DNA of 53,031 bases, taken from positions 1 to 53,031 of the IMG/VR virus record IMGVR_UViG_3300035137_000015. One strand, given 5' to 3'. The position numbers and the translations under genes are program-made. Below the pieces are notes generated by a model. That model did no database searches. It was not told where the DNA came from and worked only from the letters and a program-made list of their open reading frames with translations. This document shows, in pieces, positions 1-14,802 of this stretch; within the stretch, counting starts at the first letter, position 1; every line of letters begins with the position of its first letter. Origin of the DNA: a virus.

Positions 1-67
1 GGGCGCATACAAACATGGCAGCCCCGGGGGTGGGGTTCACAGTACCTTTTTACAGTTGGGCTTTAAT
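1..67. other. left part of intergenic cos-candidate region
   Basis: Bases 1-16 are identical to bases 53016-53031, so the contig closes into a circle here. On the circle, this stretch joins 52890-53031 to make a gap of about 210 bases upstream of the small terminase gene. That is where lambda-type phages carry cosN and cosB. It contains a GC-rich run with GCCCCGGGGG near position 20. No gene was seen. Confidence 0.4.
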
Positions 68-451
68 TTAGTATACAGGCATGTCCTCGTCAGCGACAAC
101 GGTCACTTTGCTCGCGCTGTCGAAGTCAACAACGTGCTCATGCGGAATCACCTCCTCGTGAAGTCGCTGGTGCGTCGCCTCATCCGGCGCGAGGTACATC
201 GTTATATCCAGCCTGTTGCCGCGCTTCTCCACCTGCGGCTTCGGCATCTTGATGCTGATATATTTGTACCAGTCGCAATACCGTTTGAATCCGTCCATGA
301 TGGCCCGTCTCGTCTTCGGTCTTATCCTGGACATCGTGGCCTTCTCACACTGGATGTTCGATCCAGTGAGCATATCTCTCACGGCGGCATAGACGGCGCC
401 AACGTAGATGGCCCGCTCCTTCTTCTTCCTCAGCCTCTTCCTACCCCTCAT
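68..451 (-). CDS. hypothetical protein, basic N-terminus
   Basis: This is a 127-residue protein that I do not recognise. It begins with a strongly basic stretch (RGRKRLRKKKER), followed by a mixed alpha/beta body containing FKRYCDWYKYISIKMPKP around residues 65-80. The start at 451 was chosen because GAGGAGG lies six bases upstream; the longer open frame would overlap the upstream gene almost completely. It overlaps that gene by 11 bases and is the last gene of the long minus-strand series before the terminase promoter region on the circle. A nucleic-acid-binding role would fit the basic tail but is only a guess. Confidence 0.6.
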   Translation of the reverse strand: MRGRKRLRKKKERAIYVGAVYAAVRDMLTGSNIQCEKATMSRIRPKTRRAIMDGFKRYCDWYKYISIKMPKPQVEKRGNRLDITMYLAPDEATHQRLHEEVIPHEHVVDFDSASKVTVVADEDMPVY

Positions 452-704
452 CGCCGTCCTCCTCGCGCATCTTCCTCTCAATCTCGTCAAGCCGCTTGTC
501 CATATGAACATAGCGCTCCATCCAAACCAGAAGCTTCTTCTCCACCTCGCAGACCTCGCGCCCAATGCCCTCGATTGCCCTGAGCCTTTCCAAGATGTCC
601 TCCTGGACCTTCTCTACTGCTGATACCCTGCTGACGAAGTCCTGATACATCCAAAAAAGCTTTGCGTGAAGCTCCGAAGGCTTCATATCGTCGATGTCTG
701 TCAT
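441..704 (-). CDS. small coiled-coil protein
   Basis: This is an 87-residue, charged, mostly helical protein with heptad-like spacing of Val, Leu and Ile from about residue 25 to the end (VEKVQEDILERLRAIEG, then VEKKLLVWMERYV). It looks like a dimeric coiled coil. The family was not recognised. The start at 704 is preceded by AAAGGCG at proper spacing. The gene follows a 113-base gap holding an inverted repeat (CTATAC-GTTG-GTATAG near 783-798) and is translationally coupled to the next gene. Confidence 0.6.
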   Translation of the reverse strand: MTDIDDMKPSELHAKLFWMYQDFVSRVSAVEKVQEDILERLRAIEGIGREVCEVEKKLLVWMERYVHMDKRLDEIERKMREEDGDEG

Positions 705-782
705 TGATTTTCGCCTTTCGAATTCGATACATTGATCGAATATGCCATCCCGCGCCCCCTCCCACAGCGCCCTCAAACTCTA

Positions 783-799
783 CTATACGTTGGTATAGG
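783..799. promoter_or_regulatory. inverted repeat CTATAC...GTATAG
   Basis: A perfect 6-base inverted repeat with a 4-base spacer lies in the gap upstream of the gene starting at 704. On the minus strand it contains TATAGT, a plausible -10 hexamer, but no well-spaced -35 box is visible. It could be an operator or a small hairpin. Confidence 0.3.
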
Positions 800-816
800 G
801 GCGCAAGGGGGAGATC

Positions 817-1578
817 TTAACCCCTGTTCCGAAACGCCCGCTGCTTCTCAATCTGCCGGATCAGTGCGTCTCGGTAGTAGTCCCCGAGGTGGGCCGTTAC
901 AAACCGTGTAGGCGGCCCTAGCCAATCCCTTGCCCTCGTGTACAAGGTCGTGTGTTCCATGCTGTAGAGCATCCGGAGGCGGGCACCTGTGGGCCATCCG
1001 CGCTTGACTCTGCGCCCCCCGAGTACGCGGTAGAAGCCCTTTTTGTACTTGTTGGAGGCCTTCCCCCTGACACCAAGAAAAATCGTCCTGTCGCCCGACT
1101 CGACAGCATCCTGGACGCGCCTAATAACGGCCTGCTTGGTGTTCTTGTACTTTTCCCGAATGCGCTTCGCCACTTTGAGCCGGTTTATCCAGTTGGACCG
1201 ACGAATCACCCGGGTCCTCGGCTTCGCCCCCTCCTGGCCCGCTGCAGCCGACGTGGGCAGGGGGACTCCGTGCTTGCCCCGCGTGTGCTCGGTGAACCCT
1301 TCGGTCTGCTTCCGCATGAAGTCCTCGGTGGAACCGGCCGCGCTCTCCATGTCTTCGATTCGTCGCGAGAAGGTCTTCTGGAAGCGGATCGATCTCTGAA
1401 CGAAGGTGTTCCGGATGGTGAAGAGTTGCCCGACCTTTTTTTTGGACAAGTCGCTCGCCTTGTAGGCGGCGGTGTTGAGCGTGCCACGGATTGCGTAGGG
1501 CATCCCCTGTTTGCCGAACTTGTCGAGATCGTTCTCGTACTGCTCGAGGGGGTAGGTGTCTAGTTTGATGTCAAACAC
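817..1578 (-). CDS. basic phage protein of unknown function (possible virion protein)
   Basis: This is a 253-residue, very basic protein. The N-terminus is acidic-neutral (LEQYENDLDKFGKQG) and leads into IRGTLNTAAYKASDLSKKK, a pattern often seen in small phage neck or minor virion proteins. The middle and C-terminus are Arg/Lys-rich. I chose a GTG start at 1578 because GGAGAGGAGA lies just upstream; the upstream lipoprotein gene overlaps it by 8 bases. Its position far from the head and tail modules is unusual if it is a virion protein. No domain can be named with confidence. Confidence 0.6.
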   Translation of the reverse strand: MFDIKLDTYPLEQYENDLDKFGKQGMPYAIRGTLNTAAYKASDLSKKKVGQLFTIRNTFVQRSIRFQKTFSRRIEDMESAAGSTEDFMRKQTEGFTEHTRGKHGVPLPTSAAAGQEGAKPRTRVIRRSNWINRLKVAKRIREKYKNTKQAVIRRVQDAVESGDRTIFLGVRGKASNKYKKGFYRVLGGRRVKRGWPTGARLRMLYSMEHTTLYTRARDWLGPPTRFVTAHLGDYYRDALIRQIEKQRAFRNRG

Positions 1579-1837
1579 CGCCGTCTCCTCTCCCTGCGTC
1601 CGGATACCCGATGCCACCGGCGGGCTCCGGGTAGGTTTCGGCATCCTCGTCAGCATCCGTGTCGGTGTCGTCCGCTTCGGCGAGCAAGCCGTGGGCAAGC
1701 GGAGCATCCGTCCTCTCAAGCATCGGAACAACTGGCTCCGTGTCCGTGAGCGCTTCGGTGTCGGTGTCCGCCGGGGCCGCCTCGTGGCACCCGACGATAG
1801 CCATCACAAAAACAATCTTCATCAGTTTTCCAAGCAT
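1571..1837 (-). CDS. small putative lipoprotein, Asp/Thr-rich
   Basis: This is an 88-residue protein. A short hydrophobic signal (MKIVFVMAIVGC) ends in a lipobox-like cysteine at residue 17. It is followed by Asp/Thr/Glu repeats (ADTDTEALTDTEP and DDTDTDADEDAET). The acidic repeat style matches the larger lipoprotein at 23701-24222. GGAGG sits 5 bases upstream of the ATG. The likely location is the envelope; a role in superinfection exclusion or lysogen surface change is speculation. Confidence 0.6.
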   Translation of the reverse strand: MLGKLMKIVFVMAIVGCHEAAPADTDTEALTDTEPVVPMLERTDAPLAHGLLAEADDTDTDADEDAETYPEPAGGIGYPDAGRGDGGV

Positions 1838-1858
1838 TCATTCCTCCTTCGTTGGTCA

Positions 1859-2020
1859 TCACTTGGATCGTAGCACTTCGTAGGTCTCCGAACCAATGTT
1901 TTCCGCACGCGCCTGAGCGTTCGAGCACCTGCGCCCCCAACGGATGTACGCGCACCCACCCTTGCTGGTTGTTTCGGCGCTGTAGCAATTCTCAAAGTGG
2001 GAGCACGGCGCTCCGCACAC
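1859..2020 (-). CDS. possible small cysteine-rich protein
   Basis: This tentative gene encodes 53 residues from a GTG codon. It holds five cysteines (VCGAPC, NCY, GGC, RRC) and a C-terminus reading AQARAENIGSETYEVLRSK, which has protein-like composition. It fills an otherwise empty gap between the lipoprotein and the zinc-ribbon gene. No convincing ribosome binding site is visible and the frame is closed just upstream, so the start is uncertain. A metal-binding role is possible. Confidence 0.35.
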   Translation of the reverse strand: MCGAPCSHFENCYSAETTSKGGCAYIRWGRRCSNAQARAENIGSETYEVLRSK

Positions 2021-2059
2021 CCAGGGTGTTCGGAGCAGTATCCGTGCCTGGCTTCATGC

Positions 2060-2407
2060 TCACTCCCTAGATGCACCTTTCGGAATTTGTGGACAAGGCG
2101 AAACAGAATTCCACTTGTTTGTGACGTGGTTCACCCGGTCAACAAACGCCTCCATGGTACAGCCATGATCTGCAACAAACAGAGGCACCCCGTCTTCACC
2201 ATCCTTGCTGTCGTATAGCTCTACATGAAACATGCACTCCTTGTTCTGGCAATGTAGATAGAGGCGATATTGGCGGTCTCCAGCCTGCTGGAGGTACCAT
2301 GCCGGAAGCTTCCCGCAGTACGGGCATGGGCCTGGCCGCCAAATGAGAAATGCGCCAAACTCAGCGCTTTTTTTGGGTTCTACTTTTATATCCATCTTTG
2401 ACTCCAT
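2060..2407 (-). CDS. zinc-ribbon protein, Lar-like
   Basis: This is a 115-residue protein with two cysteine pairs (CPYC near residue 28 and CQNKEC near residue 53) that would form a zinc ribbon. Its C-terminal part ends in FVDRVNHVTNKWNSV, like the EAIEAWNRR tail of phage Lar-type restriction-alleviation proteins. The match is by pattern only. The start at 2407 is preceded by AAAGGA. Upstream lie a short hairpin and the first GC-rich repeat array, the same arrangement as for the gene at 2771-3502. If Lar-like, it would modulate host type I restriction. Confidence 0.65.
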   Translation of the reverse strand: MESKMDIKVEPKKSAEFGAFLIWRPGPCPYCGKLPAWYLQQAGDRQYRLYLHCQNKECMFHVELYDSKDGEDGVPLFVADHGCTMEAFVDRVNHVTNKWNSVSPCPQIPKGASRE

Positions 2408-2459
2408 TCTTCGTTCCTTTCGTTTCCGAGTTAAAAACCGTGTTTTACACCCCGTCGGG

Positions 2460-2765
2460 TCTTTGCTGGGCTCAGCCTGGCTGCGCCGTTCCTCTGCCCA
2501 TCCTTGCCACGCCGTTGCATCGCCACGCCTTGCGACGCATTGCCGTTGCAATGCTCGGCCGCGCCCTGCACAGCCGTTGCCCGGCCGAGCAATACGAAGC
2601 CGTTGCAGCGCCTGGCCGCGCAGCGCGAGGCCACGCCGCTGCCATGCCGTTCGAAGCCTCGCCCTGCCGTTGCAAAGCACTGCCCCGCCATGCGAGGCCA
2701 AGCCGTCGCAAGGCAGTACCGGGCCCTGCCAAGCCTTTGCCAAGCGGAGCCGCGCAACGCCGTCG
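2460..2765. repeat. degenerate GC-rich pentamer repeat array 1
   Basis: About 300 bases consist of a degenerate repeat with GC dinucleotides spaced every 5 to 6 bases. On the plus strand it reads as variations of TGCCGTTGC. Open frames on both strands through it are low-complexity artefacts. It lies between the genes ending at 2771 and starting at 2407, and is followed on the minus strand by a small hairpin (ACCC/GGGT near 2449-2460). Confidence 0.85.
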
Positions 2766-2770
2766 CAAAC

Positions 2771-3502
2771 CTATTGAATCTCTTCCCACTCAAACCGACC
2801 CATCCCGCTGTTCCGCCACTGTCCGATCCCCTTGCGCTTCCCGTAATCCAGTGCCTGGCGGACGAATTTCTCGTATCCCGGATACATTACCTCTACCTCA
2901 AATTCGATCTGAGAGCCCTTCGGGATCTTCTCCGAGCACGCCAGCGCGACGCGCTCCCCCTTCATCGTTTCGGCTCGGAGCGGCCTGACCTCAAGCTTGT
3001 CATTTTTGTGATCTGGTTCCAGCGACCTCTTGCACCAGTCGACAGAGCTTTGACCTTCTGGGAATTTGATCGGGATTTCGCGAGGGTAAACGAAAATGTA
3101 ATTGTCCACCCGGCGCTTCACGACAAAGAACGAAATCTCACTGCATCCTGTTGGCCGGATGACTCCGCCATTGTCGACGAATATTCCGAACATCTCCTTG
3201 ATGAACCCTTTGATCTGGTAATCCAAGAAGATCGGAACGTTCTCATCGTCCTCGGACCTGCGGAAAACGGTCATGCCCTTTTCCTCAAGCTCCTCCTGCG
3301 GGAGGTTTTTAAGCTCGTCCTTGACCTTCTCCTTGTCTGCCGAGTTTTTACCGATGTGCTTTGAGTATATCTCGGGATCGGCCGGAGATGTACCGAGGAC
3401 CGGCCTCGTGAATGTGAGCCGGACCTTGATGGTTTTCGGATCGAACTCTGCTGTTTTCTTCGGTGGTTTTGCGGTTTTCTTTTCGGTTTTCTTTTCAGTC
3501 AT
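2771..3502 (-). CDS. phage protein with RAMP-like Gly-rich C-terminus
   Basis: This is a 243-residue protein. The first 20 residues are Lys/Thr-rich and probably disordered. The body contains FLDYQIKGFIKEMFG near residues 90-105 and the C-terminus reads GIGQWRNSGMGRFEWEE. A glycine-rich loop of that kind (GxGxxRNSGxGRF) is typical of RAMP-fold Cas proteins, and it also occurs in a family of uncharacterised phage proteins found near recombination genes. I infer a ferredoxin-like fold with possible RNA binding; no catalytic residue can be named. It lies between two GC-rich repeat arrays, downstream of the type IV-B-like operon. Confidence 0.7.
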   Translation of the reverse strand: MTEKKTEKKTAKPPKKTAEFDPKTIKVRLTFTRPVLGTSPADPEIYSKHIGKNSADKEKVKDELKNLPQEELEEKGMTVFRRSEDDENVPIFLDYQIKGFIKEMFGIFVDNGGVIRPTGCSEISFFVVKRRVDNYIFVYPREIPIKFPEGQSSVDWCKRSLEPDHKNDKLEVRPLRAETMKGERVALACSEKIPKGSQIEFEVEVMYPGYEKFVRQALDYGKRKGIGQWRNSGMGRFEWEEIQ

Positions 3503-3539
3503 TTTTCTTGCCTTTCAGCTGGTTGTTTCGCCCCGTGGG

Positions 3540-3812
3540 GCCTTTGCTTTTCAAGTCATCGCCTTGCTCTGCCGTTGCCGGGCAGTGCCGAGCATTGCCG
3601 TTGCCCTGCTGCGCCGCGCCACGCCGCTGCCATGCCGTGCAAAGCCTCGCCCTGCCGTTGCTACGCCGAGCGCCGCACTGCCGTTGCCGAGCTGCGCGAC
3701 GCTTTGCCGTTGCTCTGCCGGGCAAAGCCCTGCCCCGCCGTTGCTGGGCTTTGCTGCTCGCCGCGTTGCCGTTGCATTGCCAGGCAGATCTGAGCCAAGC
3801 CGTTGCTGCCAT
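3540..3812. repeat. degenerate GC-rich pentamer repeat array 2
   Basis: This is a second array of the same style as 2460-2765, with TGCCGTTGC and CTGCCGTTGC units recurring on the plus strand. It fills the gap between the sigma factor stop (3817) and the start at 3502. On the minus strand it ends in a GCCCC/GGGGC hairpin (3530-3541), then the ribosome binding site. It is non-coding as far as can be seen. Confidence 0.85.
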
Positions 3813-3816
3813 CTGC

Positions 3817-4554
3817 TCATCGTCTCCTTGCCTTCGCATAAATCCGAATCCTCTCCTCTACATCAACCTGTATCTGCCGTATTCTCTCCCGCGTCAGCCC
3901 GAGGATATCCCCGACTTCAGCCAATGACATCCCGGCCGCGCGGCAGGTGAAGACGATCCGCTTCTTCGCATCCATCCGCATCACCGCGCACCATGCAACA
4001 CGGCGCATTTCATCGACGGAAATCCTGTCTACCGTCTCGTTTTCACCACCAGGCCCCGGTATGACATCTTTCAACGTGAACCCGTCGTCTTTGTGTCGAA
4101 GCTCAACGTCCATCGACTCGCAATAGACCAACGCTTCACAAATCTTCTTCGCGCCTTTTTTCGACAACTGCCCCCTTCGTAATTCGAGGGCCTCAACCGC
4201 CTCGTCAATGGTAGGCATTCTGCCCGTTCGCCGCTCTTCCTCCTTTCGGTACTTGTGAACCTTTCGGCGGATCTCGTCTGCGTGGAATGGGACATAAATG
4301 TGACTGCTCAGGACGATTGCGCGTTGAATAAAACACCGGATCCACCAGTGAGCGTAGGTCGAAAACTTGAAACCCCTCGATTCGTCGAAAAGCTCTGCCG
4401 CCCGCAGAAGTCCGATATATCCCTCCTGCTTGATGTCCTCGATGTCCATCCCAGATCGCCGATACTCGTTTGCTATGGCCGCGACGAGCCCCTTGTTCTC
4501 GATGGCGAGTTGGTTTCTGCGGTCAATCGCGGCATGATCCATCGCGGCGCTCAT
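3817..4554 (-). CDS. sigma-70 family RNA polymerase sigma factor
   Basis: This is a 245-residue sigma factor. Region 2 is clear: NEYRRSGMDIEDIKQEGYIGLLRAAELFD, then the region 2.4-like FKFSTYAHWWIRCFIQRAI (about residues 30-80). Region 4 is also clear: the helix-turn-helix near residues 205-235 contains AGMSLAEVGDILGLTRERIRQIQ. A shortened region 3 lies between. It would direct polymerase to phage promoters, perhaps the late ones. The start ATG overlaps the stop of the cysH-like gene (ATGA), so it is co-translated with the type IV-B-like operon. Confidence 0.9.
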   Translation of the reverse strand: MSAAMDHAAIDRRNQLAIENKGLVAAIANEYRRSGMDIEDIKQEGYIGLLRAAELFDESRGFKFSTYAHWWIRCFIQRAIVLSSHIYVPFHADEIRRKVHKYRKEEERRTGRMPTIDEAVEALELRRGQLSKKGAKKICEALVYCESMDVELRHKDDGFTLKDVIPGPGGENETVDRISVDEMRRVAWCAVMRMDAKKRIVFTCRAAGMSLAEVGDILGLTRERIRQIQVDVEERIRIYAKARRR

Positions 4555-5255
4555 TTGACAACGCCCGAAGCTGCGATTCTGTTCAAGACATCTGGGTAGT
4601 ACTCTCGCTCCCATTCGGTTCTCCCCATGCCGTTCCCTGTCGTTCCGGACAGCGAGTGTGTTCGGAGATTCTCTCTTTTGTACCGTCCTCCTCCCAGATA
4701 TCCGTAGACCGGTGAAAGCGGAAGTCCATTATCGTGGATGTATGCGAATATTTCAGACGATCTCCAAAGAGACAGCGGCCTACAACTGTTTTTGCTAGCG
4801 AAACCATTGACGCACCATTGCAATGAGCGAACCGAAGATTCATCATTTCTAATGCCAGAGCACCTCTTTCCATACTTTTCAAAAAGTATTTTCCAATGTT
4901 TGTCTCCTTTTCTCACATCGCGATATTCGAAAACTTCTTCTTTGTAATCGAAATCGTGGGTGCGCATGAAGACGTCTCTAACCGAATCACAGTCCGGATT
5001 TGCCCGGTCACTAAATCGCATATACACAACAGATCTTTCGATGCCGCATTTCAAAAATAAATCCAACAATACGATACTATCTTTTCCCCACGAAACCATA
5101 ACGCAAGATTTATCGTTAGAGGAAAGGAAATCTCGCATCACGGTTATTGACTGGTCGCATTTCTGCTCCGACCATTTAGACATCGCATCAATCTCCTCGT
5201 AGTCTGACCACAAAGCGAGATCTTCTGTTGAGTGCCTATCTGTACGTATCAGCAT
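4551..5255 (-). CDS. cysH: CysH-like PAPS reductase/PP-loop protein of type IV-B
   Basis: This is a 234-residue protein of the PP-loop ATP-pyrophosphatase superfamily, with VSWGKDSIVLLDL near residues 53-65 as the nucleotide loop. True CysH reduces PAPS to sulfite. The copies linked to type IV-B CRISPR loci keep the PP-loop, but their role is unknown. The protein has several cysteines (CDS, CSGIRN, WCVNG, NSCRP). The start at 5255 overlaps the small regulator gene by 7 bases and the stop overlaps the sigma factor gene. Its position next to csf genes is the diagnostic feature of subtype IV-B; a sulfate-assimilation role in a phage seems unlikely. Confidence 0.85.
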   Translation of the reverse strand: MLIRTDRHSTEDLALWSDYEEIDAMSKWSEQKCDQSITVMRDFLSSNDKSCVMVSWGKDSIVLLDLFLKCGIERSVVYMRFSDRANPDCDSVRDVFMRTHDFDYKEEVFEYRDVRKGDKHWKILFEKYGKRCSGIRNDESSVRSLQWCVNGFASKNSCRPLSLWRSSEIFAYIHDNGLPLSPVYGYLGGGRYKRENLRTHSLSGTTGNGMGRTEWEREYYPDVLNRIAASGVVK

Positions 5256-5440
5256 ATCCTATACCTGTTCCCTGGAAGTTCTTGCACCGGCAAAAACAAT
5301 GACAGTTCGTTGATTATCCTAATTGCTGTCCTGCGGTTCACTTCAAGCAATGCAGCAATTTCGGATGTAGTGTGCTCCCTTGATCTCAATGCGTCCTCGG
5401 CTCTCCTGCGCCGTTGGTATGGCGTGTCTGTTCTCAGCAT
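5249..5440 (-). CDS. small helix-turn-helix regulator
   Basis: This is a 63-residue protein with an apparent winged-helix or helix-turn-helix core, HTTSEIAALLEVNRRTAIRIINEL (two stretches around residues 23-46). It resembles the N-terminal DNA-binding domain of DeoR or IclR-type regulators without an effector domain. It overlaps csf3 by 7 bases upstream and the cysH-like gene by 7 bases downstream. It is therefore produced with the Csf proteins and may regulate that operon. Confidence 0.7.
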   Translation of the reverse strand: MLRTDTPYQRRRRAEDALRSREHTTSEIAALLEVNRRTAIRIINELSLFLPVQELPGNRYRIC

Positions 5441-6117
5441 GGTATCCCCACTTCCATGAATGTTTCTGGGTGCCAGTACGGTGGGAAAGCGCCACCGAAA
5501 GAATGTCGGTATCCGGTAGCATGGGCATCCTTTACGGCTCCTATCGGCAGCGTCTTCATTAGGACAGTCCCTCCCTTATTCGGTGCGAACAGGGAGTAAT
5601 CATCAGGCTGTTCGGAGTATTCCCATCCGGCTATTCTACCGTACCCGTATGACCTGCAATGCCCAAGCGCTACGATGCGCTTCAGGAGCTTGTTCATCTC
5701 CTTCCTGTCCCCGCGAACAAACCAGTTGACGGAATCTACAACGCGTATACGGAGCGGAACAAAACGCGATTTATAAGGGCCGCTCGAGGTGAGGAGCTTC
5801 TTCCTGCTTCGCGCGCCAAGAAGCGCCGCGCAAATGTCGGTATCGAACCTCTTTGATTGTCGCTCCGTGTATTCGGCAAACACGTTTCCGAGTATCGGAT
5901 CAGAGGAGCAGTAAAAATCGATCCCACCGATGGTTCGCTTGGAAACCGGGATCGGCGGGTGCTTGATTTCGGACAGCGGCACGTTCCGCGTGAGCTTCTT
6001 CGCCATCTTGTACCCGAGGCGAAGCGCCAGCTCGTATTCGAGCAACGCATCAATCCGAGGGGGGGCCCCGCAAAGCGGTGATGACAAGTTGCACTTCACT
6101 AGCCAGTTCTTCAGCAT
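5434..6117 (-). CDS. csf3: Csf3 (Cas5-like) subunit of type IV CRISPR complex
   Basis: This is a 227-residue RAMP-type protein. The N-terminus LKNWLVKCNLSSPLCG is a typical first RAMP beta strand. LGHCRSYGYGRIAGWE near residues 165-180 is the glycine-rich loop. In type IV complexes Csf3 plays the Cas5 role, capping the 5' end of the guide RNA. Spacing, order and coupling (TGATG with csf2) support the call. The start at 6117 has GGGAGAA upstream. The open frame extends further 5', but that part overlaps csf2. No catalytic nuclease residues are expected or seen. Confidence 0.8.
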   Translation of the reverse strand: MLKNWLVKCNLSSPLCGAPPRIDALLEYELALRLGYKMAKKLTRNVPLSEIKHPPIPVSKRTIGGIDFYCSSDPILGNVFAEYTERQSKRFDTDICAALLGARSRKKLLTSSGPYKSRFVPLRIRVVDSVNWFVRGDRKEMNKLLKRIVALGHCRSYGYGRIAGWEYSEQPDDYSLFAPNKGGTVLMKTLPIGAVKDAHATGYRHSFGGAFPPYWHPETFMEVGIPC

Positions 6118-7013
6118 CAGAAATTCTCCCGTAGCCACTCGGAGAGCTCGTCGACGTGTGTATTGACGTGGGCGATGTAATCTTTGATAAGCTCGCACGG
6201 GTCTTTCAGCGCACCGAACCAATCTTCGAGACCCTCGATGTGCAGCGACGTGTTGAGCTTCCCGTGCCCGATTCTCGCGCTTCCACCGATGGTCCCGCCG
6301 CCGTTTTGCCAGAGGTGGATCGCGTGGAGCGCCGCCCCTACCTCCAACGGTGACACGTTGTACAGAATCACATCGTGATAAAATATCGCGCCCTGAATAA
6401 CGGTCTCTCCATTGTACACCATTAGATTTGATTTCGGTGCCGCGTCGCCCTTCACGATCTCTGAAGCGTCTTTCATTCTTGCCGCGTCACCTCGTGTATA
6501 CTGATACTTCGAAATGAACGATTGAGCGGGCATCAATTTTTCATCCACAATTCCGAATATTGATGGAGCGGTTTTTTCGAGCACGCCCTTATTCTCTTCG
6601 CAGACCAAAATACCGCGCGACACGAACAGGGACCCGCCGACGACCTGGTTCTTCAGCGCACCTCCGAGAAGACGATACAGTGGAGACACCGTGTGGAGCT
6701 TTGCGATCGCAGGGATGTTGTCCGTAGTGGAAGACTCCGTCAGGCTCCCGCCGGTGAACATGTAGTTCGCCTGGTCGATGTTCAGGTTCCCGCGTAAGCC
6801 GCAGGCGTCGACCAGGTACAGAGCCCCAGGCCCACGGATCATCCGGTGGCGAAGCGCATTGCCGCTGAGCACCGGAACTTCTACCACGTCGTTCTTGAAG
6901 ACGACCTTCTCTCGGTTAAGGATTGACTCGTTACCCGATACGCCTGACATGTGCGTAATCGGAGACATGGCCTCTGAGAGCATATGAATTTTGCATGTCC
7001 CGATCTGTTTCAT
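6117..7013 (-). CDS. csf2: Csf2 (Cas7-like) backbone of type IV-B CRISPR complex
   Basis: This is a 298-residue Cas7-type RAMP protein. Its N-terminal MLSEAMSPITHMSGVSGNES, the following VPVLSGNALRHRMIR and the later LLGGALKNQVVGGSLFVSRG match the pattern of IV-B backbone subunits as I know them. Several copies would line up along the RNA to form the filament. The ATG at 7013 overlaps the stop of the small-subunit gene (TGATG), with AAGGAAGG upstream. A GTG one codon earlier is an alternative start. This is the most recognisable gene of the operon. Confidence 0.87.
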   Translation of the reverse strand: MKQIGTCKIHMLSEAMSPITHMSGVSGNESILNREKVVFKNDVVEVPVLSGNALRHRMIRGPGALYLVDACGLRGNLNIDQANYMFTGGSLTESSTTDNIPAIAKLHTVSPLYRLLGGALKNQVVGGSLFVSRGILVCEENKGVLEKTAPSIFGIVDEKLMPAQSFISKYQYTRGDAARMKDASEIVKGDAAPKSNLMVYNGETVIQGAIFYHDVILYNVSPLEVGAALHAIHLWQNGGGTIGGSARIGHGKLNTSLHIEGLEDWFGALKDPCELIKDYIAHVNTHVDELSEWLRENF

Positions 7014-7474
7014 CACTCACCTTCCTTTAGGTCACGCTTAGCGTCTTTTATCGATCCCCACAGATTTCTGGCGTAAACCAGTATCACATTGCTCTTCTTC
7101 TCGATTGTCCGAAGGAATGCCATCTTGTCATCATCGCTCTTCTGCTCAAACGATATGAGCCATTTTTCGAGACGAGAGTTTGATGCAACCATAGCAGGAT
7201 TGGCCTTGATGAAATCCAGCGCCAAGTTGACAAACTCCTCGAAGTCTCCACCACACTTTTTGCATGATGAAACAATTCCATTTCCAATGCGTTCCCACAT
7301 CGTCATCCGGTCGAGCTCTGAAGAAAACAGCTCAGGCAAAATCGAACAGAAGCTGACCGCGTTTCCTTTCGCTTCCTCCATCATCTCGGCATTTTGATCG
7401 CTTGTTCGGTAATCGATCACTCCCGCAAGCTTCTGTCTGAACTCTTGCGCTGACAAAATCTTCATCTCTCGCAT
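7013..7474 (-). CDS. cas11: putative Cas11-like small subunit of type IV-B complex
   Basis: This is a 153-residue, all-helical charged protein between csf1 and csf2, the position of the small subunit in subtype IV-B loci. Sequence conservation of small subunits is low, so the call rests on size, helical content and order. There is a CKKC pair near residue 71. The start at 7474 was chosen because AAAGGA lies seven bases upstream; the open frame begins 30 codons earlier. The gene overlaps the 3' end of csf1 by 143 bases, which is unusual. Confidence 0.65.
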   Translation of the reverse strand: MREMKILSAQEFRQKLAGVIDYRTSDQNAEMMEEAKGNAVSFCSILPELFSSELDRMTMWERIGNGIVSSCKKCGGDFEEFVNLALDFIKANPAMVASNSRLEKWLISFEQKSDDDKMAFLRTIEKKSNVILVYARNLWGSIKDAKRDLKEGE

Positions 7475-8165
7475 CCTTTTTTCCTTTGCATACCCAAGCC
7501 GCAATTCGCGCCATGGGCTCATTGTGAATTTCGATCCATTCCTCAAGAATGGTTTCGTCTCCAAAATACTTCACGGTATTCAGAAAGCACGTAAACTCCT
7601 CTGGTGAAAGCAGCGCCTTCTTTCCAATCGCAGCGCTGGCCAACGTTGCTGCTTTCAAGAAATGTTCCCAGCGGCCTGCATCTATCTCAATCTGCTCTTC
7701 CTCGAGTTGGACAACAAACCATTCCCTATCGTTATTGACCGGAGCCCTAAAGATGATCTGCTTTTTCCCGCTTTCGGCGAGAACGATTGAAAACGGTGGA
7801 GCCGGGGGACATGACAAAATCTTCCTAGCGTAATCGAGATGTTTTTTACTGAACGCCGTGTTCCCCTGGGTTGATAGAACCCACGAATAGGTCCTAGGAG
7901 CTCCTCCCCTACCGGTCTTTACCTCGCCGTCAACGAGAGTTGTGTCGACGATGGTGTCCATTGATGCCACGCAGCATCCACAAACAAAATCGCTTCCAGG
8001 AAACTTGACTATGTCTCTATTGGTGAATGTCTTCTTTACGTATACGGATTTATTGTATTCGTTTCCGCATTCGAGACCGCAATAGTAACACCTGTTGTTA
8101 CCTGGAATATATTTATCTGGCGCGAATAGATATGGAGCAGTCATAAACGATGGGGTAATCATCAT
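7332..8165 (-). CDS. csf1: Csf1 (Cas8-like large subunit), type IV CRISPR
   Basis: This is a 277-residue protein with the two cysteine pairs expected of Csf1: CYYCGLEC near residues 26-33 and CGCC near residues 61-64, a four-cysteine zinc-finger arrangement. The remainder is helical (FLKAATLASAAIGKKALLSPEEF). Csf1 is the signature large subunit of type IV effector complexes. The last 47 residues are read from a frame shared with the small-subunit gene, and their Arg/Lys/Ser-rich composition suggests they are not part of the fold. The ATG directly follows the stop of the spanin-like gene, with GGAAGG upstream. Confidence 0.8.
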   Translation of the reverse strand: MMITPSFMTAPYLFAPDKYIPGNNRCYYCGLECGNEYNKSVYVKKTFTNRDIVKFPGSDFVCGCCVASMDTIVDTTLVDGEVKTGRGGAPRTYSWVLSTQGNTAFSKKHLDYARKILSCPPAPPFSIVLAESGKKQIIFRAPVNNDREWFVVQLEEEQIEIDAGRWEHFLKAATLASAAIGKKALLSPEEFTCFLNTVKYFGDETILEEWIEIHNEPMARIAAWVCKGKKDARDEDFVSARVQTEACGSDRLPNKRSKCRDDGGSERKRGQLLFDFA

Positions 8166-8657
8166 TCACCTTCCAATCACGAGCGCACCGATGATAATTC
8201 CAACCCCGACACCAACCAGCGTCGCACCGCCGCCAATCAGTATCGCTCGTAGCTTTGCCTTCCTGGCCTCTCCCCCGGCTCTCTTCTGGTCGCTCTCGCG
8301 GAGTTGGTACACAAACTGCCTGTCGTCCTCTGCGGCCCTTAGCGTCGTGTTACAGCGCTCCAGGGATGTCTCGAGGGATGATAGGTGAAGCTCAATGTTT
8401 TCGACCTCATCATTCAGCTCAAGGTGCAACTCGGAGAGCGTCCGGTATGTCGCATAAATCCTGAGCACGCCCTGGAACCCGCGAAAGTCCGTCTTGACAA
8501 ACTCTTTCCCTCCGATCTCGAGTCGCTCGAAATCCGGGAGCGGCAAATCAAGGTTTATATCGGACCTTCCCTTGTCCGCGTAACTCATCCGCGATTGTAA
8601 GCAGGTCACCAATGCTGCCAGCAGAATCAATCCTGTCAACGGTCTCGGCGTTTGCAT
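8166..8657 (-). CDS. putative spanin component with C-terminal membrane anchor
   Basis: This is a 163-residue protein with an N-terminal hydrophobic signal (LTGLILLAALVTC, a weak lipobox), a long coiled-coil middle (LHLELNDEVENIELHLSSLETSLE) and a C-terminal membrane segment (LIGGGATLVGVGVGIIIGA). Signal plus coiled coil plus terminal anchor is the plan of unimolecular spanins, which fuse inner and outer membranes at lysis. It starts inside the upstream gene (110-base overlap, AAGGAGAAA upstream of the ATG), like overlapping Rz/Rz1 pairs. csf1 follows with no gap. Confidence 0.6.
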   Translation of the reverse strand: MQTPRPLTGLILLAALVTCLQSRMSYADKGRSDINLDLPLPDFERLEIGGKEFVKTDFRGFQGVLRIYATYRTLSELHLELNDEVENIELHLSSLETSLERCNTTLRAAEDDRQFVYQLRESDQKRAGGEARKAKLRAILIGGGATLVGVGVGIIIGALVIGR

Positions 8658-8928
8658 CGTATTTCTCCTTCACGTGCTCTTTTATTTCGTCTCGGATCTT
8701 CTTCATCCTGTCCCGGTCGGCTTCGGCCGCTGCCTCGGTCTCGAAGTGCGACTCAACGCGGTCGTCAACCGACGCCTTGTGATGGGTCACGATCTCTTCC
8801 GGGGTCACGCGTACCGAGCAGCGCCACATGAATAGTAGGGCGATGCCGAGCACCACGGGGATGGCGAGAAGTACCTTCCAATACCATTTCAGGTTGACGA
8901 ATCCATCCCATAGGGTTTTGGGTGTCAT
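8548..8928 (-). CDS. Rz-like inner-membrane spanin candidate
   Basis: This is a 126-residue protein with one N-terminal membrane segment (WKVLLAIPVVLGIALLFMW, residues 17-35) and a charged helical periplasmic part (EAAAEADRDRMKKIRDEIKE). Topology and position between holin and the next spanin-like gene fit an i-spanin. Sequence identity to known Rz proteins was not recognised. It overlaps the holin gene by four bases (ATGA). Confidence 0.6.
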   Translation of the reverse strand: MTPKTLWDGFVNLKWYWKVLLAIPVVLGIALLFMWRCSVRVTPEEIVTHHKASVDDRVESHFETEAAAEADRDRMKKIRDEIKEHVKEKYDANAETVDRIDSAGSIGDLLTIADELRGQGKVRYKP

Positions 8929-9221
8929 GGCGTCTCCTTTCTGTTCTGGCTGGTCTCGCGCCGCTTTTCGAGATGGCCCTCAATGTCGTTCGAAAGCGCT
9001 CCCTTCACGGTCCCAAGAAACCGGTCCACCGTCGCCTGGTTTGTGAGGTACGACACCGTCACGGTTGTGAGCCCAAGGGCGATGATGCCCATTACAACCC
9101 CGGTCATCGTGTTGAACGCTGCGCCCTGGACGATGGCCAGCACCAGACACCCTCCAAGAACCGCGATCGACGCAAAGAATGCGGCGAACTTTTTCGAGTT
9201 AAAAATATTTTTGTCTTTCAT
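8925..9221 (-). CDS. putative holin
   Basis: This is a 98-residue protein with two predicted membrane segments (FFASIAVLGGCLVLAIVQGA near 15-34 and MTGVVMGIIALGLTTVTVSYL near 38-58) and a charged C-terminus rich in Glu, Arg and Lys. Size, topology and position between the amidase and the spanin genes support a holin that opens the inner membrane for the endolysin. The start ATG overlaps the preceding stop. Confidence 0.7.
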   Translation of the reverse strand: MKDKNIFNSKKFAAFFASIAVLGGCLVLAIVQGAAFNTMTGVVMGIIALGLTTVTVSYLTNQATVDRFLGTVKGALSNDIEGHLEKRRETSQNRKETP

Positions 9222-9427
9222 TTCTCGACCCCCTTGAGTGTCTCCTTCCAGTTGGAGACGAAGAGGGGCACGCCGTAACCGTGTTTGAAGCTCCATCGGC
9301 TTTCAAGCGGCGTAACGTCTGCCCTCTCGGAGAACCCCCATGGTGTCCCCCATTGGTCAACGGCGAAGCGGTCGCAATCCACCGGCACCTCTACCTCGAT
9401 TTCGATCTTTACTCGTCTCGTTTTCAT
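9218..9427 (-). CDS. small hypothetical protein in lysis cassette
   Basis: This is a 69-residue soluble protein that is not recognised. The N-terminus is a charged beta strand (RRVKIEIEVEVPVD), followed by several aromatic residues (WGTPWGF, SRWSFKHGYG). ATGA overlaps on both sides place it firmly in the lysis operon. Confidence 0.6.
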   Translation of the reverse strand: MKTRRVKIEIEVEVPVDCDRFAVDQWGTPWGFSERADVTPLESRWSFKHGYGVPLFVSNWKETLKGVEK

Positions 9428-9663
9428 GGCGTCACGCCCTCCAGTTCGCACAAGCTTTTTTCCAAATCCTCGCAATACGGAGGAATGTCGACCTCGCAAG
9501 AATCCGCGCAATTCATCCATTGTCCTCGAAATTTTATTGGCTTGAAAACGCCAAAAACACGAACCGATTTATCCCAGTCAATCGCAATCCATTCAGCCCA
9601 GTTCGGGCACCAGACGGTATGGTCAACGCCATCGCACCTGAATTTCTTCATTACGATTCTCAT
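9424..9663 (-). CDS. small hypothetical protein, Trp- and Cys-rich
   Basis: This is a 79-residue protein with five tryptophans and six cysteines (WCPNWAEWIAIDWD; CADSCEVDIPPYCE). It may bind metal or be disulfide-stabilised. No family was recognised. It overlaps the amidase stop and the next start by four bases each. Confidence 0.6.
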   Translation of the reverse strand: MRIVMKKFRCDGVDHTVWCPNWAEWIAIDWDKSVRVFGVFKPIKFRGQWMNCADSCEVDIPPYCEDLEKSLCELEGVTP

Positions 9664-10271
9664 GGCGTCACCGTGTCCATTTCATATCGAAGCATCGCCG
9701 CGACATGCGAAGCGGCGATCGCTTGTCGCCCTGCTGGCCGGGATAGAAGTTCGCAGTCGCTTTTCGATGTCATGAATCCGTTTTCGGTGAGCACGGCAGG
9801 CATCTTAGTGCGCTTCAAGACGTAAAAACCCGCCACCTTTATGCCCCTGTTTCGGAGAACTATTTGGGGGAGTTCTTCAGACAGAATTAACGCCAGGTTC
9901 TGTTCTGGAATGGATGCTCCAGGTTTTATGAACACCGCAAAACCTTCTGCGTTGCTCCACCCTCCTTTCCCGGACGCGTTCGCGTGAACAGAGATGAACG
10001 CGCAACGGTGCGTCTCGTTGAGCTTGTTTGCTCGCCGTACGCGCTCCCGCAATGGAATCGATTCTTTTTGGACCACGATGTCAACGCACTGAATACCTGC
10101 CGCCTCTCCGAGGCTTATGATCCGGTTGACAACATCTCGGTTGAACTCCCACTCATAGATCCCTGGCGGAATCTCCGGACTTCTTTTCCCAGGCGTGTCA
10201 CACCCGTGACCAGGGTCAAGAAGCCAAAGCAGTTTTGACGGGTCTATGTTTGTGATCTTGATGTCAGTCAT
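9660..10271 (-). CDS. N-acetylmuramoyl-L-alanine amidase (endolysin)
   Basis: This is a 203-residue Amidase_3-family enzyme that cleaves the bond between muramic acid and the stem peptide of peptidoglycan. The zinc ligands are visible: LLDPGHG with the first His near residue 19, a Glu in the WEFNRDVVNRI strand, and FISVHANA with the second His. The catalytic Glu is in VLTENGFMTS. No signal peptide is seen, so export would depend on the holin. AGGAGAAG precedes the ATG at 10271. Confidence is high. Confidence 0.92.
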   Translation of the reverse strand: MTDIKITNIDPSKLLWLLDPGHGCDTPGKRSPEIPPGIYEWEFNRDVVNRIISLGEAAGIQCVDIVVQKESIPLRERVRRANKLNETHRCAFISVHANASGKGGWSNAEGFAVFIKPGASIPEQNLALILSEELPQIVLRNRGIKVAGFYVLKRTKMPAVLTENGFMTSKSDCELLSRPAGRQAIAASHVAAMLRYEMDTVTP

Positions 10272-10272
10272 C

Positions 10273-10485
10273 TCACTTCTCCTTCGCGAGCAACTCGCGG
10301 AGCTTCGCGCGTGCGTCCGCGCGGGCATCTCGTGATGTGCATTTGCCGAATTCGGAGTTTTTGCAATACGGACTCATCATTTCCGGAACGCAAAAACGGC
10401 AATGTTTGTCGTCCCCCGTAGACCCGCAGAAATACCTCAACACTTTTCCCCTGGCGCTTACCGCGCACATGTTTCGTTTAGTCAT
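10273..10485 (-). CDS. small Cys-rich protein
   Basis: This is a 70-residue protein with Cys at MCAV, FCG, CRFC, YCK and KCTS, suggesting one or two metal sites, and a helical Ala/Arg-rich tail (ARADARAKLRELLAKEK). It was not recognised. The start overlaps the preceding stop by 8 bases, with GGAGGGAC upstream. Confidence 0.6.
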   Translation of the reverse strand: MTKRNMCAVSARGKVLRYFCGSTGDDKHCRFCVPEMMSPYCKNSEFGKCTSRDARADARAKLRELLAKEK

Positions 10486-10714
10486 CGTCCCTCCATTGGC
10501 ACGACAGATCGCGCCTCGTCTCCCAGTCGTCGCAACCGGACATATTGGCACTCACGTACCACTCGTTTTTGATGCACGCCCCGTACCATTGCGGGGGCGG
10601 CTTTTTCGGTAGTCTGATGAGCAGCGGAAGAGAGTCGCGTCGCTCGAAGTCTCTGCCCTTTTTCGATCTGCGGTAGTGGATGCACTTCCCGCAGGGTTTT
10701 TCCGGAGCGCCCAT
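10478..10714 (-). CDS. small Cys-rich protein
   Basis: This is a 78-residue protein with PCGKC near the N-terminus and later ACIKN, GCDDW and SCQW. The spacing suggests a zinc-binding knuckle, as in many short phage proteins between replication and lysis genes. Function is unknown. It abuts the VRR nuclease gene. Confidence 0.6.
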   Translation of the reverse strand: MGAPEKPCGKCIHYRRSKKGRDFERRDSLPLLIRLPKKPPPQWYGACIKNEWYVSANMSGCDDWETRRDLSCQWRDDD

Positions 10715-11103
10715 CAGTACACCTTCCCTTGGATAAACTCGCCTATCATGTAGGCTTCTATCGCGTTGATCCCTGACTGCGCCGGGTAGTCGGTCCTGGT
10801 CACGAATGTTGCAAATCCTTGTCTTCGGACGTATTCGCCAAACGCGATCTGTTCCGGTGACAACTTGTCCTCCCCGACTTTGACCTCGACGTACAGCCCG
10901 TTGTGCAAACTTCTAAAGTTGGGAACCGGCATAAACAGATCCCACACTCCGGCGAGGACTCCCTCGCGCTTGAGCTTCGCGGCCTCGGTTTTGCTGCGCT
11001 TGCCACCGTTCGGGCACGCGTAGATCCACTCCGCTCCGCCGCCACGGAGACGGCAATACCTGACGATCTCGCATTGGGCCTTGTGGTGTTCATCGGATCT
11101 CAA
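10714..11103 (-). CDS. VRR-NUC domain nuclease
   Basis: This is a 129-residue single-domain protein of the VRR-NUC family, a PD-(D/E)XK-type nuclease found in phages and in FAN1. Visible motifs are the N-terminal EHHKAQCEIVRYCR, CPNGGKRSKTEAAKLKREG, the GVWDLFMP acid, and LYVEVKVGEDKLSPEQ carrying the E-x-K pair. It probably acts on branched DNA. The start is TTG at 11103, overlapping the stop of the Dam gene. A 15-base repeat suggests the original ATG start was displaced when the Dam gene was inserted. Confidence 0.85.
   Translation of the reverse strand: MRSDEHHKAQCEIVRYCRLRGGGAEWIYACPNGGKRSKTEAAKLKREGVLAGVWDLFMPVPNFRSLHNGLYVEVKVGEDKLSPEQIAFGEYVRRQGFATFVTRTDYPAQSGINAIEAYMIGEFIQGKVY
11088..11102. 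repeat. 15-bp direct repeat, downstream copy
   Basis: GTTCATCGGATCTCA here is identical to 12125-12139. The two copies bracket the Dam methylase gene exactly. Confidence 0.85.
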
Positions 11104-12140
11104 AACAGACTCCCTTGCTCGCTGGCTACACAGTGAGGAGAAAACCAAATCCTCTCCTTGTATTTGTTTTTGTTGCCATCAGAGTTCCGTGAAGCATATC
11201 CTCCTCTTGTTTTCCAAGATACGCATTCCCAGCTTGGCGGCATCTCGTGCTCTCCTTCATAGCCGCAGAGCGCGATCCGCATGTTCTTGTCTTCACCGTG
11301 TTCAATTGCCCACCTCCTCACATCATCGGACACCGAAAGCGACTCTTTTGCGTACAAAGATGAGCATCTTTGAGCGGCTTCGCCGTAGGGAGGGTCCAAA
11401 AATACGGCTGTGGTCCCCCGTATTGTGGTTGGTGTTGGGCCACATACCCGAGACCAGTCTCCGCAACAAACTCTCACGCGTCGCATGCGTTCGGACAGTT
11501 TTTCGAACCACTCATAAATTCCGCCCTTCCTGTGGACGCCTCGCCCGGCATTCCCGAGGTGGACGAGCTTCCTGTGGACGCCTCGCCCGGCATTCCCGAG
11601 GTGGACGAGCTTCCTGTGGACGCCTCGCCCGGCATTCCCGAGGTGGACGAGCTTCCTGTGGACGCCTCGCCCGGCATCCCCGAGGTGGACGAGCTGGCCG
11701 TCTACGACCTGCCACGGACCTTTCCCGCTGCAAAATTCGCTTCCTATCCAACAGCAGATCCCCCAGACCCACCACCCGGCTATTTTTGCGTCGTAGTAAT
11801 CCGGGTCACCCTCGAGGAGTGGAGTCAAACTTTCCCGCTGGTTGATCAACCACGCGTGACGCGCATGGAGATCATTTTCGTTCACAGGCCAATCTGCGTA
11901 ACGAGCCACTTCGCTAGGATCAGACGATACGGATCTCCAAAAGTTGGCAACAAATCCGTCCAGGTCGTTGATCGTTTCTGTCCTGTTAACGCGCGGAGAG
12001 CCGAGCAATACAGCACCAGATCCGAAAAACGGTTCAACGTAATTGTCAACCTGGCCAAATCTTTTCCAGACAAGATCGGCGACCATCGACTTTCCGCCAA
12101 ACCATGGGAACGGGGCCTTTAGCGGTTCATCGGATCTCAT
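11100..12140 (-). CDS. DNA adenine N6-methyltransferase (Dam/D12 class)
   Basis: This is a 346-residue D12-class adenine methylase. PFPWFGGKS (residues 10-18) and VEPFFGSGAV (FxGxG motif) bind S-adenosylmethionine; FLDPPYG near residue 250 is the DPPY catalytic motif. It would methylate phage DNA, probably protecting it from host restriction. A 14-residue unit (LVHLGNAGRGVHRK) repeated four times is inserted between the target-recognition region and motif IV. The gene is bracketed by 15-base direct repeats and looks like a late insertion. Confidence 0.9.
   Translation of the reverse strand: MRSDEPLKAPFPWFGGKSMVADLVWKRFGQVDNYVEPFFGSGAVLLGSPRVNRTETINDLDGFVANFWRSVSSDPSEVARYADWPVNENDLHARHAWLINQRESLTPLLEGDPDYYDAKIAGWWVWGICCWIGSEFCSGKGPWQVVDGQLVHLGDAGRGVHRKLVHLGNAGRGVHRKLVHLGNAGRGVHRKLVHLGNAGRGVHRKGGIYEWFEKLSERMRRVRVCCGDWSRVCGPTPTTIRGTTAVFLDPPYGEAAQRCSSLYAKESLSVSDDVRRWAIEHGEDKNMRIALCGYEGEHEMPPSWECVSWKTRGGYASRNSDGNKNKYKERIWFSPHCVASEQGSLF
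11526..11693. repeat. 42-bp tandem repeat, four copies
   Basis: Four direct 42-base units begin with CTTCCTGTGGACGCCTCGCC on the plus strand. They lie in frame inside the methylase gene, each coding for 14 residues. Copies differ by only a few bases, so the expansion is recent or kept uniform. Confidence 0.95.
12125..12139. repeat. 15-bp direct repeat, upstream copy
   Basis: Identical to 11088-11102. This copy contains the ATG start of the Dam gene; the other copy lies at the start of the VRR nuclease gene. Confidence 0.85.
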
Positions 12141-13109: not shown

Positions 13110-13112
13110 GTC

Positions 13113-14796: not shown

Positions 14797-14802
14797 CACT
14801 CC

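What the first reader, a model, noticed from the sequence alone, without database searches (positions are those of the whole stretch)
4551..8165. Type IV-B CRISPR-Cas operon on a phage genome
Sequence shows csf1 with CxxC pairs, a helical small-subunit gene, csf2, csf3 and a cysH-like PP-loop gene in that order, all overlapping. Known: cysH next to csf genes without cas6 or dinG marks subtype IV-B, whose function is unresolved. The window has no array, so any guide RNA must come from the host or elsewhere. Residence in a lytic-style phage, directly after lysis genes, suggests late expression and a role against rival elements or host defence.
Basis: partly seen in the sequence, partly recalled or inferred. 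Interest (0 to 1): 0.95.

Follow-up and report, generated by a model that had tools for sequence, protein, structure and literature searches.

The report
Phage type IV-B CRISPR operon
A bacterial virus carries a complete but array-less CRISPR-like gene set (type IV-B) whose job is unknown, and comparison with related viruses shows a changeable gene slot next to its conserved ATP-using enzyme, which hints that the complex chemically modifies RNA or DNA rather than cutting it.

Summary
The finding is real. On the minus strand, 8165 to 4551, lie csf1, cas11, csf2, csf3 and a cysH-like gene, with strong type IV matches (PADLOC E 1e-67, 5e-42, 1e-96, 1e-34; PAPS_reduct above cut-off). No array, Cas6 or tyrosine integrase was found in the record, a linear 53-kb IMG/VR contig of a contractile-tailed phage. 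The operon starts directly after lysis-region genes.

Phage-borne IV-B is already in print. What looks new, within my limited searches, is a clade (9 rows, support 100/99) of IMG/VR contigs in which the place between csf3 and cysH holds exchangeable genes: HTH (3), HD, SPOUT-like, weakly Cas6-like, unknown, or none; one member lacks cysH and has a radical-SAM-like gene there. Two members 79% identical in DNA differ in the slot gene. The PP-loop is intact in 15 of 15 aligned viral CysH-like proteins; the CysH-type cysteine is not conserved. Preferred mechanism: a Csf filament on RNA presents nucleic acid to an AMP-transferring modifier. This is inferred; decoy and guided-repression models remain open.

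The parts
7332..8165 (-). csf1 (Cas8-like large subunit, 277 aa, two CxxC pairs)
   Evidence: PADLOC typeIV_Cas8 1.1e-67; Cys pairs in 9 of 9 aligned Csf1; GC 0.47
7013..7474 (-). cas11 (small subunit, about 153 aa; start inside csf1)
   Evidence: PADLOC typeIV_Cas11 4.9e-42; start candidate at 7474 behind an AGGAAAAAAGG stretch
6117..7016 (-). csf2 (Cas7-like backbone, 299 aa)
   Evidence: PADLOC typeIV_Cas7 1.1e-96; profiles that hold it match IV-B Csf2 7jhy
5434..6117 (-). csf3 (Cas5-like, 227 aa from ATG 6117)
   Evidence: PADLOC Csf3 1.4e-34; start touching the csf2 stop (TGATG)
   Evidence: HTH families below Pfam cut-offs (best 20.6 bits against 24.6); same-place homologues in L044 and L038 (phmmer E 5e-9 to 2e-6 within a set of 20 proteins)
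4551..5255 (-). cysH-like PP-loop ATPase of IV-B type (234 aa), motif SWGKDS
   Evidence: PF01507 38.1 bits, above cut-off; S-x-GKDS in 15 of 15 aligned viral proteins; model pLDDT 82, nearest APS/PAPS reductase, CysD, FAD synthase
3817..4554 (-). sigma-70 family gene (245 aa), start codon inside the cysH stop codon; phage-like composition, not seen beside IV-B in the nearest relatives
   Evidence: PF04542 2.4e-16, PF04545 2.3e-7; ATGA overlap and GC3 0.66

Best explanation
It is a phage-borne type IV-B CRISPR effector cassette (near certain, about 0.97). Most likely mechanism: Csf1, Cas11, Csf2 and Csf3 assemble as a filament on RNA, cut nothing, and bring the bound RNA or its base-paired target to the CysH-like enzyme, which splits ATP to AMP and pyrophosphate and uses the activated intermediate to modify that nucleic acid (the phage's own as a mark, or host/rival RNA or DNA to disable it). 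The HTH protein most likely regulates the cassette. Shown here: gene identities, order, coupling, intact PP-loop, purifying selection in close relatives, slot exchange. Inferred from a published relative: filament on RNA. Inferred only: the chemistry, the substrate and the benefit to the phage. The confidence given is for the mechanism.
For: Type IV matches for all four complex subunits. PP-loop S-x-GKDS and an R-x-x-E motif invariant in 15 of 15 aligned viral CysH-like proteins, window included, in 8 of 8 of a mostly plasmid set, and by eye in the five clade members not in that alignment (L038, L039, L042-L044). Model nearest to APS/PAPS reductase, ATP sulfurylase CysD and FAD synthase, with tRNA thiolases and TilS further down. 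20 of 23 IV-B viral contigs searched hold a CysH-type match; in one of the 20 (L014) it is only a DUF3440-type reductase. Two of the three without it have a radical-SAM-like gene directly after csf3: L025 (Radical_SAM 43.7 bits, cut-off 29.5) and L041 (21.1 bits, below cut-off; TIGR04013 B12/radical SAM E 1.7e-8, also below its cut-off; CxxxCxxC motif by eye). A SPOUT-like gene fills the slot in L043 (PF00588 E 1.4e-6, 28.9 bits, just under the 29.7 cut-off). Between L038 and L039 dN is 0.08-0.17 while dS is about 1.2 or more. The place of Asp42 of 7jhy (Csm3-type catalytic Asp) is Gly28 in the window by hand count on the alignments.
Against: No RNA, target or modified nucleotide was observed. 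Radical SAM, SPOUT and HD enzymes can act on other substrates; phages in anoxic samples carry many radical SAM genes (PMC9723712, passages), and in my set radical SAM matches also lie away from csf genes, among them a second one on the L041 contig (6 of 25 records have a match, 3 over cut-off). Two replacements are few, and L025 and L041 are on short contigs. In the window itself the slot holds only an HTH protein. Two reviews call the IV-B CysH an 'inactivated' derivative (PMC11656645, PMC8730458; passages).
Confidence: 0.36

Rival explanations
1. Decoy: the Csf complex soaks up small RNAs, including host crRNAs, without a guide of its own, and so blinds RNA-guided host defence. CysH would be accessory.
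For: The M. sp. JS623 IV-B complex bound heterogeneous RNA, not co-expressed crRNA (PMC7937560, passages). No array or Cas6 match in the window.
Against: A conserved PP-loop protein has no place in it. Some relatives carry Cas6 (L025, L026, L029) or a two-repeat mini-array directly before csf1 (L020), which suggests that the bound RNA matters at least there.
Confidence: 0.25
2. Guided interference: the complex borrows crRNAs from host arrays and blocks transcription of rival elements or host defence genes, as type IV-A does, without cutting.
For: Type IV-A represses transcription without a nuclease (PMC11656645, passages). A mini-array occurs beside IV-B in L020 and in the archaeal Fuxivirus (PMC10848311, passages). 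Cas6 genes occur in three relatives.
Against: No array in the window; DinG not seen in the capped PADLOC list. The one solved IV-B complex did not enrich crRNA. No array taken as such in the three Cas6-bearing contigs (the last 596 bases of G017 not scanned). The L020 spacer had no significant phage match (best E 0.4).
Confidence: 0.2
3. RNA-guided transcription control: the complex works with the coupled sigma factor to direct host polymerase.
For: Sigma gene coupled by ATGA to cysH; sigma-like or HTH genes between csf3 and cysH in L019, L020 and L021 (only L021 exceeds a sigma cut-off, region 4).
Against: The window's sigma gene is not beside IV-B in the nearest relatives L038, L044 or L013, has phage-like composition unlike csf1 and cysH, and homologues are spread over 132 phage-collection records. 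Another record, L014's, has its sigma gene kilobases away from csf.
Confidence: 0.05
4. Passenger: a recently acquired, inactive cassette.
For: csf1, cas11, HTH and cysH are GC-poor (0.45-0.49) against 0.52-0.60 for the nine non-csf phage genes measured; csf2 and csf3 are 0.55.
Against: All frames open and tightly coupled; strong purifying selection between L038 and L039.
Confidence: 0.05

Closest known systems
Type IV-B system of Mycobacterium sp. JS623 (PDB 7jhy; PMC7937560, passages read)
   Same: csf1, cas11, csf2, csf3, no array, no Cas6; Csf2 related (profile E 9.6e-10 with three clade members; 4e-63 with the mixed IV-B set)
   Different: Plasmid-borne; the operon as described in the passages lists no slot gene; window Cas11 finds no PDB match by sequence (best E 0.63)
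Skermania phage SPI1 IV-B genes (KR011061.1, orf40-44, annotated as hypothetical)
   Same: Isolated phage with csf2, csf3 and cysH in a row, about 2 kb before lysin and holin genes. Csf2 rests on tblastn E 1e-6; csf3 and cysH on my alignment and gene order (its own sequences were in the seeds); csf1 and cas11 on order only
   Different: 33.9% identity over 42% of Csf2; no slot gene; outside the window's clade
Fuxivirus (Bathyarchaeia virus) IV-B (PMC10848311, passages read)
   Same: Virus-borne csf genes with adjacent CysH-like gene
   Different: Archaeal virus, has a mini-array and Cas4; its sequence was not compared here
IMG/VR contigs L044, L038, L039, L012
   Same: Csf2 67, 56, 55 and 52% identical; csf order and cysH
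   Different: Slot gene HTH (L044, L038), unknown (L039) or HD (L012); the sigma-70 gene is not beside cysH in L044, L038 or L039 (L012 ends soon after cysH)
PAPS reductase CysH
   Same: Fold and Pfam family
   Different: No conserved CysH-type cysteine, PP-loop of the ATP-pyrophosphatase type

Membership tests
Type IV-B CRISPR-Cas | csf1, csf2 and csf3 present | tested here: met
   PADLOC 1.1e-67, 1.1e-96, 1.4e-34 (its models are labelled IV or IV-A and do not part the subtypes); NCBIfam equivalog models match only well below their cut-offs
Type IV-B CRISPR-Cas | cas11 small subunit present | tested here: met
   PADLOC typeIV_Cas11 4.9e-42
Type IV-B CRISPR-Cas | cysH-like gene in the operon | tested here: met
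   PF01507 38.1 bits over cut-off 22.5; overlaps the HTH gene, which overlaps csf3
Type IV-B CRISPR-Cas | no Cas6 | tested here: met
   PF10040: 0 matches in the record. A RAMP-like C-terminus at 2771-3502 stays unresolved (Csm4 model E 0.039; model failed)
Type IV-B CRISPR-Cas | no CRISPR array | tested here: met
   Repeat searches; the record is linear, so an array beyond its ends is possible
Type IV-B CRISPR-Cas | no dinG, cas1, cas2 or cas10-like gene | tested here: inconclusive
   PADLOC on 62 other predicted proteins: 37 families, no Cas family among the 25 shown; 12 not shown
Type IV-B CRISPR-Cas | filament of Csf2 and Cas11 on RNA | not testable with these tools
   Needs purification
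PAPS reductase (CysH proper) | PAPS reductase domain | tested here: met
   APS/PAPS reductase chains at Z 12.8-15.2
PAPS reductase (CysH proper) | conserved catalytic C-terminal cysteine | tested here: not met
   Only one column with Cys in 30% or more of rows in each alignment (9 of 15 in A7; 3 of 8 in A2), in the middle of the protein near the conserved Pro160
Type IV-A | cas6 plus CRISPR array (with dinG) | tested here: not met
   Cas6 and array not found; dinG itself only through the capped list
Type IV-C | Cas10-like large subunit with HD domain in place of Csf1 | tested here: not met
   The large subunit is Csf1. Csf2 of three clade members scores somewhat better against chain 11fs 'Cas7c' (2e-14) than 7jhy (1e-9); the subtype of 11fs was not looked up

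The most novel reading that the evidence does not exclude
Type IV-B is an RNA-guided or RNA-scaffolded nucleic-acid modification machine with exchangeable chemistry: the Csf filament is the fixed part, and the enzyme beside csf3 (PP-loop CysH, B12-type radical SAM, SPOUT-like, perhaps a tRNA-guanine-transglycosylase-like protein in L027) is the swappable tool, spread among phages as a cassette.
Probability: 0.16. Interest if true: 0.92.

Novelty: new variant of a known kind. Interest (0 to 1): 0.6.

Why it matters
The function of IV-B is an open question, and a review points to the CysH-like protein as the likely key (PMC8175902, passages). This locus belongs to a clade of phage cassettes where the gene beside cysH changes while csf genes and cysH stay, and where cysH can be missing with a radical-SAM-like gene in its place. 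That makes concrete tests possible: which nucleotide changes, and whether different tool genes give different changes. It also shows that 'no cas6, no array' does not hold for every phage locus that I place near IV-B by its Csf2.

Tried and rejected
Rejected: that the 2771-3502 protein is a Cas6 of this system. It has a RAMP-like glycine-rich end, but homologues occur in four faecal phage records in a collection where the window's Csf2 matched only SPI1, no plasmid matched, and the single-sequence model failed (pLDDT 37). Rejected as a conserved component: the sigma-70 gene (see rivals). Rejected: that period-five GC-rich repeats near the window's operon mark IV-B loci; by my score only L017 and L026 have strong ones. 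Repeats in the size range of an array that I did not take for arrays, by judgement (coding, palindromic or unevenly spaced): window 13750 and 23815, L014, L017 (a 28-base palindrome in several copies at 5754-5917), L022, L024, L029, L042, and in L045, L050, L054 and L056. An Rfam search of window 1-15000 gave nothing at E 1 or less. Viral scans with window csf2, csf1, sigma and RAMP-like proteins each found no relative; the cysH scan found one, L012. The second contig of this phage (G001, 100% over 41,462 bases) ends at window 11,569, in a 42-base tandem repeat, and so says nothing on the operon. A genome-contig scan gave one locus, a Bacteroidales MAG; I did not analyse it further. Host not identified. 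L025 and L027 are distant from the window's clade. The tRNA-guanine-transglycosylase reading of L027 rests on one weak match (PHROG E 0.0068). TrmL-like reading of L043: NCBIfam E 0.0014, far below cut-off. Cas6-like reading of L042: Pfam E 0.018 and NCBIfam 0.093, below cut-off.
Full report
What is there. The window is a whole IMG/VR virus record, 53,031 bases, linear. PHROG matches give terminase, portal, head protease, major head protein, tail sheath, tape measure and baseplate proteins, so it is a contractile-tailed phage. On its minus strand, in transcription order: an endolysin (9660-10328), an Rz-like spanin match (8548-8928), an unmatched gene (8166-8657; all three), then csf1 (7332-8165), cas11 (7013-7474), csf2 (6117-7016), csf3 (5434-6117), a 63-aa HTH gene (5249-5440), the cysH-like gene (4551-5255) and a sigma-70 gene (3817-4554). 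Every junction from csf1 to the sigma gene touches or overlaps; cysH stop and sigma start share ATGA.

Identity. PADLOC E-values: csf1 1.1e-67, cas11 4.9e-42, csf2 1.1e-96, csf3 1.4e-34. NCBIfam csf1, csf2 and csf3 models match below their cut-offs. The CysH-like protein exceeds the Pfam PAPS_reduct cut-off. Cas6 (PF10040) has no match in the record; no array was found; no tyrosine integrase (0 of 9 records searched). PADLOC on 62 other predicted proteins shows no Cas family among the 25 of 37 families listed. So the gene content is that of IV-B.

Relatives. Csf2 tblastn finds 1 of 50,697 phage-collection records (Skermania phage SPI1, 33.9% over 42%) and 15 of 72,556 plasmid records. An alignment query gave 17 viral contigs (L013-L029), and a second one with close sequences gave 8, two of them seen before (L013, and L040 which is the contig of L012). 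With the window this makes 25 contigs, L015 and L016 being near-duplicates. Genes in them were assigned with profiles whose seeds held the window, L012, SPI1 and plasmid sequences, so only L012, SPI1 and the plasmids are matched by construction. In a Csf2 tree of 31 rows (left out: L016, the MAG locus L031, Gloeobacter L005 and 8 further plasmid hits) the window sits in a group of 9 rows, support 100/99, all from viral contigs; the six plasmid rows and SPI1 fall outside. Because relatives were fetched with the window's own Csf2, 'viral only' describes this sample. L013 joins on a long branch, which the tree tool flags.

The slot. In those 9, the place between csf3 and cysH holds: HTH in the window, L044 and L038 (homologous, phmmer 5e-9 to 2e-6 within a set of 20 proteins; 2.8e-7 and 7e-5 among the ORFs of seven loci); HD domain in L012 (PF01966 22.9 bits, cut-off 22); SPOUT-like in L043 (28.9 bits, cut-off 29.7); a weakly Cas6-like protein in L042 (E 0.018); an unmatched 125-aa protein in L039; nothing in L013; and in L041 a B12/radical-SAM-like gene (below the Pfam cut-off; NCBIfam TIGR04013 E 1.7e-8, below cut-off) with no CysH-type gene on its 11.7-kb contig. 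L038 and L039 align at 79% DNA identity from the csf1 start through csf3 and at 74% in cysH, while the gene between differs. L039 lies in a 224-kb contig and L038 next to a terminase gene, so the cassette sits in different phages. dN between them is 0.08-0.17 against dS of about 1.2 or more for csf1, cas11, csf2, csf3 and cysH (saturated for cysH).

Outside the clade. Sigma-like or HTH genes lie between csf3 and cysH in L019, L020 and L021 (matches near or below cut-offs except GerE in L019 and sigma region 4 and HTH_3 models in L020/L021). Cas6 genes above the Pfam cut-off occur in L025, L026 and L029 (3 of 20 records). L020 has two identical 28-base repeats around a 35-base spacer that end 16 bases before csf1; I accept no other array in the loci and contig pieces scanned, though other repeats of that size were flagged (listed under Tried and rejected). 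L014 has a DUF3440-type reductase and a ParB_N-like gene (below cut-off) between csf2 and csf3. L018 and plasmid locus L009 share a homologous slot gene (E 2e-6 within a set of 20). CysH-type matches occur in 20 of 23 contigs searched (window and L016 not included); missing in L025, L027 and L041; L014 matches only through its DUF3440-type gene. L025, like L041, has a radical SAM gene directly after csf3 (43.7 bits, cut-off 29.5; best NCBIfam models are B12 types, below cut-off), and the two are homologous (E 2e-7 and 4e-7 within a set of 20). Against a special link: radical SAM matches occur in 6 of 25 records, some far from csf genes, and L041's contig has a second one.

The enzyme. S-x-GKDS, R136 and E139 are invariant in 15 of 15 aligned viral proteins and 8 of 8 of the first set; the five further clade proteins keep them by eye. 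No cysteine is conserved where CysH has its catalytic one (position of that residue from PMC8175902, passages, and recall). The window protein modelled with 15 sequences reached pLDDT 82. Closest folds, tied within 1 Z: APS reductase (Z 15.2, rmsd 3.1, 177 residues), ATP sulfurylase subunit CysD (15.1, 2.7, 158) and FAD synthase (14.5, 2.7, 157). A shared fold shows no function. Two reviews call the IV-B CysH inactivated; the invariant PP-loop argues that ATP splitting at least is kept.

Mechanism. Shown: genes, coupling, conservation, slot exchange. From a published relative (PMC7937560, passages): the complex is a Csf2/Cas11 filament on heterogeneous RNA. Csf2 here lacks an Asp at the place of Asp42 of that relative (hand count), so target cutting by the Csm3-type residue is unlikely. 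A retained adenylating-type enzyme, and its replacement in two loci by another kind of enzyme known from nucleic-acid modification among other uses, fit modification of nucleic acid somewhat better than a pure decoy. Taylor et al. already proposed nucleic-acid modification by CysH (PMC8175902, passages); what I add is the slot pattern and the cysH-less loci. Decoy and guided repression remain open.

Known or new. IV-B in plasmids and an archaeal virus, and type IV in prophages and several lytic phages, are in print (PMC10848311, passages; PMC11656645). For the slot pattern, the radical SAM replacement and IV-B with a sigma factor I searched the open library and saw no report in the listings; in the one paper holding all three radical SAM search terms, the passages shown place a virus-borne csf cluster beside an anti-RecBCD gene and discuss radical SAM separately. 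Two key papers on type IV diversity were not held, so this is a limited search.

Noticed in passing
window 2771-3502 (-): Protein with a RAMP-like glycine-rich C-terminus, weak Csm4 match (E 0.039); homologues in four human faecal phage records at 37-45% identity.
   Followed up: partly
window 2491-2760 and 3570-3775: GC-rich degenerate repeats flank that gene on both sides; GCAACGGCA occurs 8 times in the window, all on the minus strand in this area, 0.69 expected.
   Followed up: partly
window 11526-11735: 42-base tandem repeat inside a DNA methyltransferase-like gene; a second contig of the same phage breaks there.
   Followed up: no
window 13627-14172 and 20861-21340: Two related genes (300 bases at 70% identity).
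   Followed up: no
window 49493-49545: Perfect 25-base inverted repeat with 3-base loop, beside short plus-strand genes.
   Followed up: no
L020 127-217: Two-repeat CRISPR mini-array directly upstream of a phage IV-B csf1.
   Followed up: partly
L025, L026, L029: Cas6 genes in or beside csf operons on phage contigs, no array accepted on those contigs.
   Followed up: partly
L014 10846-12713; L028 11436-13994; plasmid loci L003 and L009: A second PAPS-reductase-like gene (in L014 the only one; DUF3440 by Pfam there and by annotation in L009) with a ParB-N-like gene beside csf operons.
   Followed up: partly
L012 5830-6699: A weak radical-SAM match (12.8 bits) in a phage gene that ends 13 bases before csf1.
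   Followed up: no
L017 2111-2971; L026 6951-7091: Long runs of GGCNN pentamers.
   Followed up: partly
L017 5754-5917: Several copies of a 28-base palindrome (ACTCATCGGACA...TGTCCGATGAGT) at uneven spacing upstream of csf1.
   Followed up: no
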